Assembly (NCBI RefSeq): GCF_006384975.1
Contig: NZ_CP021645.1
Coordinates: 3,872,001-3,936,000 of the forward strand
DNA from: Pseudomonas oryzihabitans
GTDB taxonomy: Bacteria; Pseudomonadota; Gammaproteobacteria; Pseudomonadales; Pseudomonadaceae
DNA: 64,000 bases
Direction of reading: 5' to 3'
A program made the translations under genes and the position numbers. How positions within the stretch are numbered: the stretch's first letter is position 1; each line of letters begins with the position of its first letter. Under the pieces are notes generated by a model. The model searched no databases. It was given only the letters and a program-made list of their open reading frames with translations, and was not told the origin of the DNA. Positions 12,900 through 14,355 of the stretch are shown piece after piece.

Positions 12900-12991
12900 T
12901 CCAATGAGCTCCAATGAGCTCCAATGAGCTCCAATGAGCTCCAATGAGCTCCAATGAGCTCCAATGAGCTCCAATGAGCTCCAATGAGCTC
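12900..12991. repeat. Nine perfect tandem copies of a 10-bp unit upstream of fic
   Basis: The unit CCAATGAGCT repeats nine times without a mismatch (12901-12990), and one further matching base lies on each side. Each junction creates the palindrome GAGCTC. The period is close to one DNA helical turn, so all units face the same side of the helix. The array ends 33 bp before the fic start, in the place of its promoter or leader. Perfect identity points to recent slippage and likely copy-number variation between strains. Confidence 0.97.
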
Positions 12992-13023
12992 AAAAAAGGC
13001 CAAGGGTAGACGGAAATCGCGCA

Positions 13024-14355
13024 ATGGCAGTGAAAGAGGAGCTTCTCCAGGTACTGCGGGGGCGGGCGGATACCGAGCGTCCTTGGATGAGTTCCACTGA
13101 GTTGGCAGTACGCCTCGGTACGACTAGCTTGGCGACCGTGAAGCGTCATTTGGATGCTCTGGTTCGATCAGGTGACGTGCTACGGGCAGGACAGCGCCGG
13201 GGTACGCGCTATAGCCTGAACCTGGAATCGCACGTCGATCCTGCTGCTGAGGCACCACCTCCGGTACTGTCGGCAGCGCAGGCGTTGAAGAGTCAGCTCC
13301 TGCAACCGCTGGCGAGCCGTCAACCGGTCACCTATCAAGCCGACTTCGTGGTCGACTATGTCCCGAATCAAAGCTTCCTGCTCCCAGAAACGCTCGCGCA
13401 CGCCCTGGCCGCCGAAGGCGGCATGCAGGGGCAACAACCAGCGGGTACCTATGCCCGGCGCGTCCTTGAGCCGTTGTTGATCGACCTGTCCTGGTCTTCA
13501 TCGCGTCTTGAGGGCAACCCCTTCTCCCTGCTCGCGACCGAGGCGCTGTTCAGGAAGGGGACGGCAGACGGGGATCTGGATGCGGTGATGCTGCTCAACC
13601 ACAAGGCGGCCATCGAATTCCTGATCGATGCAGTGCCCGAGTACGGTCTGACCTCTGGCGTGATCCACAACCTGCATGCGCTGCTGATGCAGGATCTGTT
13701 GATGGACAGCGCTGGCCTGGGAGTCATCCGGCACAAGATCGTCAGTATCTCGGGGACCACCTACTACCCCTCCCACGTGCCTACCCAGCTGCAGGAGATG
13801 TTCGAACTCATCCTCGGCAAGGCGCGACAGATCAACAACCCCGTTGAGGCCGCCTTTTTTCTCTGGGTAAACCTGGCTTACCTGCAACCCTTCGAGGATG
13901 GCAACAAGAGGACCAGTCGGCTCGCCGCAAACATTCCGCTGATGCTCTACAACTGCGCGCCCCTCTCTTTCCTGGATATCGAGGCGCAGGACTACGCCTA
14001 CGCGATGATGGGGGTTTATGAACACCGCAACGTCGCCCTGGCGATCGAATTGTTCGAAAGCGTCTATCGGCGCTCGATCACCAAGTATGGCGTGCAACTA
14101 GCGGCCGTGGGCATTCCTGACCCTGTGCGCTTGCGGCTGCGCAGCGCACTTGGCGATGCGGTGGGAATGGTGGTGCGTGAGCGTCGATCGCTTGAGCAGG
14201 CTGTGGCCGCCGTTCAGCTAGCGAAGGCCGATGCCGTAATCTTTCGGCAAATGCTGGTCGAGGAGCTGCGCACCCTGGGCATGCACAACTGCGCCCGCTA
14301 TCGGCTGACGATCAGCCAGACCCAGCACTGGATAGACGCTGGACGGCCCCAGTAG
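13024..14355 (+). CDS. Fic-domain protein with N-terminal winged helix
   Basis: A 443-residue protein. The N-terminus (about 1-65) looks like a winged helix (SSTELAVRLGTTSLATVKRHLDAL). The Fic core follows, with an inhibitory-helix motif SSRLEG (residues 159-164, the [ST]xxxE[GN] pattern of class II Fic proteins) and the signature QPFEDGNKRTSR (288-299). Fic enzymes usually AMPylate Ser, Thr or Tyr on target proteins and use the His of HPFx[DE]GN; here that His is Gln288. A related subgroup with Gln may exist, so activity is uncertain. No antitoxin-like ORF is adjacent. The gene sits between glcB and rpoZ, not a position I know from PAO1, so transfer is plausible. Confidence 0.85.
   Translation: MAVKEELLQVLRGRADTERPWMSSTELAVRLGTTSLATVKRHLDALVRSGDVLRAGQRRGTRYSLNLESHVDPAAEAPPPVLSAAQALKSQLLQPLASRQPVTYQADFVVDYVPNQSFLLPETLAHALAAEGGMQGQQPAGTYARRVLEPLLIDLSWSSSRLEGNPFSLLATEALFRKGTADGDLDAVMLLNHKAAIEFLIDAVPEYGLTSGVIHNLHALLMQDLLMDSAGLGVIRHKIVSISGTTYYPSHVPTQLQEMFELILGKARQINNPVEAAFFLWVNLAYLQPFEDGNKRTSRLAANIPLMLYNCAPLSFLDIEAQDYAYAMMGVYEHRNVALAIELFESVYRRSITKYGVQLAAVGIPDPVRLRLRSALGDAVGMVVRERRSLEQAVAAVQLAKADAVIFRQMLVEELRTLGMHNCARYRLTISQTQHWIDAGRPQ

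What the first reader, a model, noticed from the sequence alone, without database searches (positions are those of the whole stretch)
12900..13024. Nine perfect 10-bp repeats, one per helical turn, form the upstream region of an HTH-Fic gene
CCAATGAGCT repeats nine times without error, ends 33 bp before the fic ATG, and has a period near one helical turn. This could be a phased array of binding sites for the Fic protein's own winged helix, or a slippage-prone expression switch that changes promoter spacing. Arrays of this kind next to a single Fic protein are not something I know from the literature.
Basis: partly seen in the sequence, partly recalled or inferred. Interest (0 to 1): 0.72.

Follow-up and report, generated by a model that had tools for sequence, protein, structure and literature searches.

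The report
Self-operator repeat array before Fic-like gene
Nine perfect 10-letter repeats in front of a gene for a DNA-binding, Fic-like protein look like one case of a widespread arrangement in which such solitary genes carry a row of docking sites, about one per DNA turn, most likely for their own protein.

Summary
The array is real: (TCCAATGAGC)x9.2, window 12900-12991, without error, 32 bp before a 443-aa fic ATG, with no other two-unit copy in the 5.36-Mb genome. P. rhizoryzae RY24 has it with 7 copies. Many related winged-helix (wHTH) Fic genes in other genera and phyla carry clusters of a lineage-specific motif upstream. In the nearest 38 loci TGAGC is the most enriched 5-mer (191 vs 24.7 expected), and spacings cluster at 10-11 and 20-22 bp even where copies are not tandem duplicates. 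Motif similarity tracks wHTH similarity after allowing for the Fic domain (partial r 0.31, p 0.0005). Best explanation: a cooperative operator for the protein's own wHTH that controls fic itself. The Fic active-site His is Gln in 84 of 84 rows, so ordinary AMPylation is unlikely; this variant was noticed in 2015 as clade D2 without a function. fic occupies a glcB-rpoZ insertion site that holds an Abi_2 gene in three relatives, hinting at defence. Binding, repression and slippage switching remain untested. New variant of a known kind.

The parts
12900..12991 (.). operator-like array, (TCCAATGAGC)x9.2, period 10 bp
   Evidence: counterpart with 7 perfect copies in P. rhizoryzae RY24
12897..12925 (+). 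weak sigma70-like candidate TTGTCC-N17-TCCAAT whose -10 lies in the array (tentative; 15% of 20 shuffles score as high)
   Evidence: none found by the stricter scan
13024..14355 (+). wHTH-Fic gene, 443 aa
   Evidence: dN/dS 0.16 against RY24
13024..13233 (+). N-terminal winged helix-turn-helix (residues 1-70)
   Evidence: model: H2-14, H24-31, H36-49, E52-55, E62-65; profile match of residues 8-70 to HlyU (E 0.005, marginal) and 5-91 to AdcR (E 0.0075, marginal)
13129..13170 (+). predicted recognition helix (residues 36-49)
   Evidence: model helix H36-49; its role is inferred from the wHTH layout
13498..13518 (+). class-II-type inhibitory motif SSRLEGN (residues 159-165)
   Evidence: S159, E163, G164 in 83 of 84 rows, the other row a gap
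13885..13920 (+). Fic motif QPFEDGNKRTSR (residues 288-299), Gln in place of the catalytic His
   Evidence: Q288 in 84 of 84 rows and invariant in 64 of 64
12793..14355 (+). inserted segment (leader, array, fic) between glcB and rpoZ; not matched in the two empty-site genomes read by sequence
   Evidence: the six relatives compared match the window up to 12785-12798 and again from exactly 14356

Best explanation
The array is an operator for the protein that the downstream gene encodes. The N-terminal wHTH recognises a roughly 10-bp motif (here TGAGCTCCAA). Several copies about one turn apart let many molecules bind side by side, head to tail, giving cooperative and probably repressive control of fic. 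The gene is a solitary mobile cassette that carries its own control. Its Fic domain keeps the nucleotide-site and inhibitory residues but lacks the catalytic His, so it more likely senses a nucleotide or does other chemistry than AMPylate. Perfect tandem arrays such as this one are probably slippage-expanded versions of an older, imperfect array. Shown by computation: array, motif clusters in many relatives, spacing, motif-wHTH covariation, Gln, absence of a common neighbour gene in the loci examined. Inferred: binding, cooperativity, repression, signal, biological role (defence or element maintenance).
For: Repeated 8-mer above all 60 shuffles in 43 of 81 loci (by my count of its rows, 31 of the 38 with the nearest wHTH). 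TGAGC tops all 5-mers, 191 vs 24.7, in 36 of 38 loci; 29 further loci, picked by me from the rest, have CGCGA, CGCAA and CGACA on top. Spacing: 73 of 109 adjacent centre distances at 10, 11 or 20-22 bp in 24 loci without tandem duplication, against a null mean of 24% (maximum 41% in 2000). Covariation: partial r 0.31, p 0.0005, 58 loci; 0.06 for the region downstream of the gene. Sites in both orientations argue for a DNA rather than an RNA signal, though the motif is nearly palindromic. In relatives with a convincing promoter the motifs overlap it (L104, L112, L110, L077, L064). Plasmid loci not used for the motif work: 4 of 8 exceed all 200 shuffles. No neighbour gene common to 57 loci. Precedents: CccR autorepression, BldC head-to-tail binding to direct repeats.
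Against: No binding or expression data. 38 of 81 loci do not exceed all shuffles in the single-locus 8-mer test, 31 of them outside the nearest cluster, and 287 of 1518 control windows pooled reach their locus's count. 55 of 83 loci have no array by Tandem Repeats Finder. Of the 8 plasmid loci 4 fall short (5, 11, 21 and 152 of 200 shuffles as good). The spacing classes were chosen after seeing the histogram, and the motif model was trained on the same regions. The phase test does not separate 10 from 10.5 bp. Motif similarity keeps a small correlation with the Fic domain given the wHTH (0.078, p 0.005). L080 (Achromobacter pulmonis) appears to have lost its wHTH yet keeps four degenerate sites. 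The window's own promoter is unresolved, and the long tandem arrays L053 and L068 show no promoter-like site either (95% of shuffles as good), so repression rather than activation is a guess from other relatives.
Confidence: 0.75

Rival explanations
1. Slippage-driven contingency locus: copy number changes promoter spacing or operator number, so fic expression varies between cells.
For: Perfect 10-bp units; 9 copies here and 7 in RY24; two Dyella loci 10.9 and 3.9, three Pseudomonas loci 5.6, 8.6 and 12.6.
Against: The species differences are over long times. Many relatives have imperfect arrays, unlikely to slip, with the same motif and spacing. A 10-bp unit keeps the helical phase roughly constant, which is odd for a spacing switch. 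No promoter flanking the array is evident. Compatible with the operator reading as a secondary effect.
Confidence: 0.15
2. The array binds a different host regulator that controls fic.
For: No binding data exclude it; a distant Myxococcales locus (L097, 44% identity) has TGAGCCGTAAA repeats like those of P. gingeri.
Against: Motif clusters accompany the gene in several phyla and vary with its wHTH beyond what the Fic domain predicts. In the host genome no other two-unit site exists, so such a regulator would serve this gene alone.
Confidence: 0.1
3. Neutral microsatellite without function.
For: A perfect tandem repeat can arise by slippage alone.
Against: Same core motif in non-identical arrays at the same place in several genera; control windows rarely have such arrays (18 of 1253).
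Confidence: 0.04
4. RNA-level leader: the repeats fold in the fic mRNA and control translation.
For: The array of this window folds well as RNA (z -5.2), because each unit junction holds the palindrome GAGCTC.
Against: Relatives have sites in both orientations and units without that palindrome, such as Dyella ATTTGGGCTG. RNA folding of the relatives was not tested.
Confidence: 0.05

Closest known systems
CccR of Yersinia pseudotuberculosis (PMC9755527; abstract, passages and data-availability section seen)
   Different: HTH is C-terminal; intact His in HPFGNGNGRTVR; two inverted boxes 26 bp apart instead of an array at one-turn spacing; AMPylates FtsZ; secreted by T6SS.
Fic/Doc clade D2 of Khater and Mohanty 2015 (PMC4454073; one section and passages seen)
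   Same: Motif Qx[F/Y]x[D/E][G/V]NKR, Gln for His, bacterial.
   Different: Described from 45 sequences as usually single-domain, no function assigned and no upstream sites in what I saw; the family here has an N-terminal wHTH and upstream motif arrays.
CbFic2 of Coxiella burnetii (PMC10628234; passages seen)
   Same: Class II Fic protein with a wHTH; DNA binding changes its activity and dimerisation.
   Different: C-terminal wHTH; intact HPFDDGNGR; random DNA was used, and no operator sequence appears in the passages.
BldC of Streptomyces (PMC5859096; passages seen) and RdfS/Xis-type wHTH filaments (PMC11963761; passages seen)
   Same: wHTH proteins binding direct repeats head to tail, with one DNA turn per bound BldC at smeA-sffA.
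   Different: BldC is a 68-residue wHTH protein without a Fic domain; not solitary self-operator arrays of this kind.
Phd-Doc and FicTA modules (recalled, plus search listings and abstracts)
   Same: Self-regulated operators next to a Fic-fold gene.
   Different: Separate antitoxin gene; here the DNA-binding domain and the inhibitory motif are in one protein and no neighbour recurs.

Membership tests
Fic/Fido fold (PF02661) | Pfam Fic domain above gathering score; Fic fold | tested here: met
Canonical AMPylating Fic | Catalytic motif HxFx(D/E)GNGRxxR | tested here: not met
   QPFEDGNKRTSR; Q in 84 of 84 and K in 84 of 84 rows
Class II Fic (N-terminal inhibitory helix) | (S/T)xxxE(G/N) motif N-terminal to the Fic motif | tested here: met
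   SSRLEGN, S159/E163/G164 in 83 of 83 rows with a residue; aligned with IEGN of the FICD homologue
Clade D2 of Fic/Doc (Khater and Mohanty) | Motif Qx[F/Y]x[D/E][G/V]NKR | tested here: met
   sequence shows QPFEDGNKR; the family has G in 51 and V in 33 of 84 rows
Clade D2 of Fic/Doc (Khater and Mohanty) | Usually single-domain | tested here: not met
   has a modelled N-terminal wHTH
Clade D2 of Fic/Doc (Khater and Mohanty) | Groups with their sequences in a tree | not tested
   their sequences were not at hand
CccR-type self-repressing Fic | HTH C-terminal to Fic; two inverted boxes with a 26-bp spacer | tested here: not met
   wHTH is N-terminal; array of direct copies
CccR-type self-repressing Fic | Binds its own promoter and represses it | not testable with these tools
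   comparative support only
SoFic anti-phage system | SoFic-like over its length, with intact catalytic His | tested here: not met
   PADLOC SoFic model (361 positions) matches only residues 145-309 at E 5e-11; PDC-S04 models match better, best 1e-16; Gln in the motif
BldC-like head-to-tail wHTH binding | Direct repeats about one turn apart | tested here: met
   period 10 bp here; spacing 10-11 and 20-22 bp in relatives
BldC-like head-to-tail wHTH binding | Oligomerisation on DNA | not testable with these tools
   no complex was modelled
Two-gene toxin-antitoxin (Phd-Doc, FicTA) | Adjacent antitoxin gene | tested here: not met
   57 loci share no common neighbour among ORFs of at least 90 aa; the largest group spans 11 loci at scattered positions. 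Shorter ORFs were not tested
Phase-variable contingency locus | Repeat number varies between relatives | tested here: met
   9 and 7 copies in the two orthologous loci
Phase-variable contingency locus | Variation within a population alters expression | not testable with these tools
   no reads or strain series available

The most novel reading that the evidence does not exclude
A widespread class of solitary Fic-fold proteins has given up His-based AMPylation and become a nucleotide-gated transcription factor that coats its own promoter as a helical row of molecules. The array acts as a built-in titration device: bound molecules are held silent, and loss of binding releases both expression and activity, making a one-gene defence or addiction unit with no antitoxin.
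Probability: 0.2. Interest if true: 0.82.

Novelty: new variant of a known kind. Interest (0 to 1): 0.6.

Why it matters
Relatives are plentiful: one search scored 7999 proteins, its ceiling, and many of the named ones among the best 120 are called only 'Fic family protein'. The variant active site was flagged in 2015 without a function. The arrays give a direct handle: each gene that has one carries its own predicted operator, so DNA specificity, cooperativity and the signal that releases it can be tested gene by gene. The covarying motif and wHTH pairs are also a natural set for learning a wHTH recognition code, and orthogonal self-repressors could come out of it.

Tried and rejected
Promoter and terminator scan of the window region found none. 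Pfam and NCBIfam did not name the N-terminal domain of the window protein; the model shows it, and several relatives carry precomputed HTH-type Pfam accessions such as PF12840, PF13412 and PF01022 (that these are HTH families is recalled). PHROGs: best match phrog_11900, unknown function, E 6e-29, residues 143-346. Phage records: 27 with a match, none covering 80% of the query. Neighbour clustering found no common gene. A natural test by wHTH loss was inconclusive: L080 seems to have lost the wHTH but keeps four degenerate sites; L085 has no wHTH and one site. Per-subclade motif building merged the two strands of near-palindromic motifs and over-counted sites; only its drift of motif with recognition helix was looked at, and no count rests on it. 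Control family: canonical C-terminal-HTH Fic genes gave 0 of 5 above all shuffles, one at 1 of 60; 4 of the 9 loci, and L137, had no motif-bearing frame found by my pattern. Rows dropped: one search left out L125 (short), L057 and L076 (no start); one search set aside 8 tandem loci and dropped 6 near-duplicates of 38; one search kept 58 after dereplication; one search used 57 of the 80 loci (long enough). One search kept 80 of 153 relatives. Paper searches on the Gln variant: none; of the 33 papers (20 listed) I followed up two on this point, and PMC4454073 describes it. PMC12249575 (Sofic), PMC12894286 and PMC5033356 were seen in passages only.

Full report
OBSERVATION. The window holds one tandem array, TCCAATGAGC x9.2 at 12900-12991, without a mismatch, 32 bp before the ATG of a 443-aa reading frame at 13024-14355. 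It exceeds all 60 dinucleotide shuffles and all 20 control windows. In the genome (one contig of 5,364,174 bases) no other two-unit copy exists within 3 mismatches. A motif 15-mer within 2 mismatches has 8 hits in the array and 2 isolated ones elsewhere.

ACTIVE SITE. The Fic motif reads QPFEDGNKRTSR. In the alignment of window plus 83 loci the Gln is present in 84 of 84 rows, as are F290, D292, N294, K295, R296 and R299; the inhibitory SSRLEGN has S159, E163 and G164 in all 83 rows with a residue. The 64-sequence alignment agrees. These sequences were gathered by similarity to the window protein and are not independent. A profile alignment sets this Gln against the motif His of the C. elegans FICD homologue. 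Khater and Mohanty (PMC4454073, one section read) described such a clade, D2, with 45 usually single-domain sequences and no function, and suspected that it is not dead but does something else. Ordinary AMPylation is therefore unlikely but not excluded.

RELATIVES HAVE ARRAYS. A scan of genome contigs found 153 relatives and kept the best 80 loci; reading upstream regions showed motif clusters in many. Frequent periods are 10, 11 and 19-21: for instance ATTTGGGCTG x10.9 in Dyella flagellata, TGAGCTGCAT x8.6 in a Pseudomonas, GCTGCAATGA x10.3 (80% match) in Cupriavidus gilardii, TCTCGCCATTA at 11 bp in two Verrucomicrobia contigs. The stricter 8-mer test is passed by 43 of 81 loci; over all loci 287 of 1518 control windows reach the locus's count. 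Among the 38 loci with the most similar wHTH, GCTCA/TGAGC is the most enriched of all 5-mers (191 seen, 24.7 expected, 36 of 38 loci); 29 further loci that I picked from the rest have CGCGA, CGCAA and CGACA on top. Eight plasmid loci not used for the motif work: 4 of 8 exceed all 200 shuffles, the others have 5, 11, 21 and 152 of 200 shuffles as good; 7 of 8 show the Gln motif by pattern, and my pattern found no motif in the eighth.

SPACING. A motif model (about TGAGCYSATT) gives 5.6 sites per 250 bp upstream and 0.16 elsewhere in the same loci (threshold 8; trained on the same upstream regions). In 24 loci without tandem duplication, 73 of 109 adjacent centre distances up to 35 bp fall at 10, 11 or 20-22 bp; with 31 and 32 allowed as well the null mean is 24%, the maximum 41% in 2000 draws. 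I chose those classes, and the test cannot tell 10 from 10.5 bp. Near-helical spacing is thus not only a by-product of tandem duplication.

COVARIATION. Over 58 dereplicated loci, similarity of upstream words correlates with wHTH identity (0.55) more than with Fic identity (0.48). The partial correlation with the wHTH given Fic is 0.31 (p 0.0005), the reverse 0.078 (p 0.005); downstream of the gene the wHTH partial is 0.06. This is what a protein and its own operator would show.

PROMOTER. In several relatives the best sigma70-like site is embedded in the motifs: L104 TTGACA-18-TATAAT followed by a motif pair, L112 with a motif in the spacer, L064, L077 and L110 likewise (the 34 best loci and five named ones were printed, 20 shuffles each). 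This suggests repression. Against it, L053 and L068, with long tandem arrays, have no better site than 95% of shuffles, and the window's best candidate is weak (15%; none).

CONTEXT. fic is patchy: 2 of 13 genus genomes and 2 of 298 family genomes at E 1e-100, the window's own counted in both. Six relatives compared align to the window up to 12785-12798 and again from exactly 14356. Read by sequence, the glcB-rpoZ site is empty in G002 and G009, holds a 330-aa Abi_2 gene in G003, G004 and G006 (AbiD by PADLOC in the one tested), and a two-component system with a TonB receptor in G011. By coordinates it is also short in G007 and G008. No neighbour recurs across 57 loci. On plasmids the gene lies near integrases in 5 of the 8 records viewed, and beside a restriction endonuclease, a HipA-type pair, or a WYL, multiubiquitin and ThiF set in one record each. 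PADLOC matches are partial: PDC-S04 (1e-16) and SoFic (5e-11). Defence or element maintenance is a guess from this.

MECHANISM. I commit to a self-operator: wHTH on a row of sites one turn apart, bound cooperatively, controlling fic. BldC shows that wHTH proteins bind direct repeats head to tail, with one turn per molecule at one promoter (passage in PMC11963761). CccR shows a Fic protein repressing itself through two inverted 10-bp boxes. Canonical C-terminal-HTH Fic genes: 0 of the 5 loci that could be read, out of 9, exceed all shuffles, a small control.

NOVELTY. In the paper library I found no report of such arrays next to Fic genes (open-licence papers only; search listings, with passages of a few papers). 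The parts are known separately, so I file it as a new variant of a known kind.

Noticed in passing
window 12793-14355; L130, L131, L132, L133: The glcB-rpoZ gap is an insertion site that holds different cargo in relatives: an Abi_2 gene in three genomes, a two-component system with a TonB receptor in one, nothing in at least two.
   Followed up: partly
L080 near 5977: The Achromobacter pulmonis copy appears to have lost its wHTH by an in-gene deletion but keeps four degenerate motif copies upstream.
   Followed up: partly
L097 upstream of the gene: A Myxococcales contig has TGAGCCGTAAA repeats nearly identical to those of P. gingeri although its protein is only 44% identical to the window's.
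   Followed up: no
L136 (G000:C1:4082873-4084042): The same genome has a canonical HPFVDGNGR Fic gene; TTATTAA words lie in both orientations just upstream, perhaps a CccR-like operator. A third Fic domain lies at G000:C1:5033265-5033570.
   Followed up: partly
window 13024-13239: Synonymous divergence from RY24 is higher in the wHTH part (dS 0.28) than in the rest of fic (0.08), perhaps from recombination.
   Followed up: no
window 10603-13149 minus strand: A mechanical 848-aa antisense ORF runs through the array and glcB; it is most likely spurious.
   Followed up: no
L158: On an Undibacterium plasmid the gene sits beside a WYL regulator and a multiubiquitin, ThiF and DUF6527 set.
   Followed up: no
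L047 7596-7638: In RY24 a 15-bp repeat (2.9 copies) lies just downstream of fic, probably in the 3' part of rpoZ.
   Followed up: no
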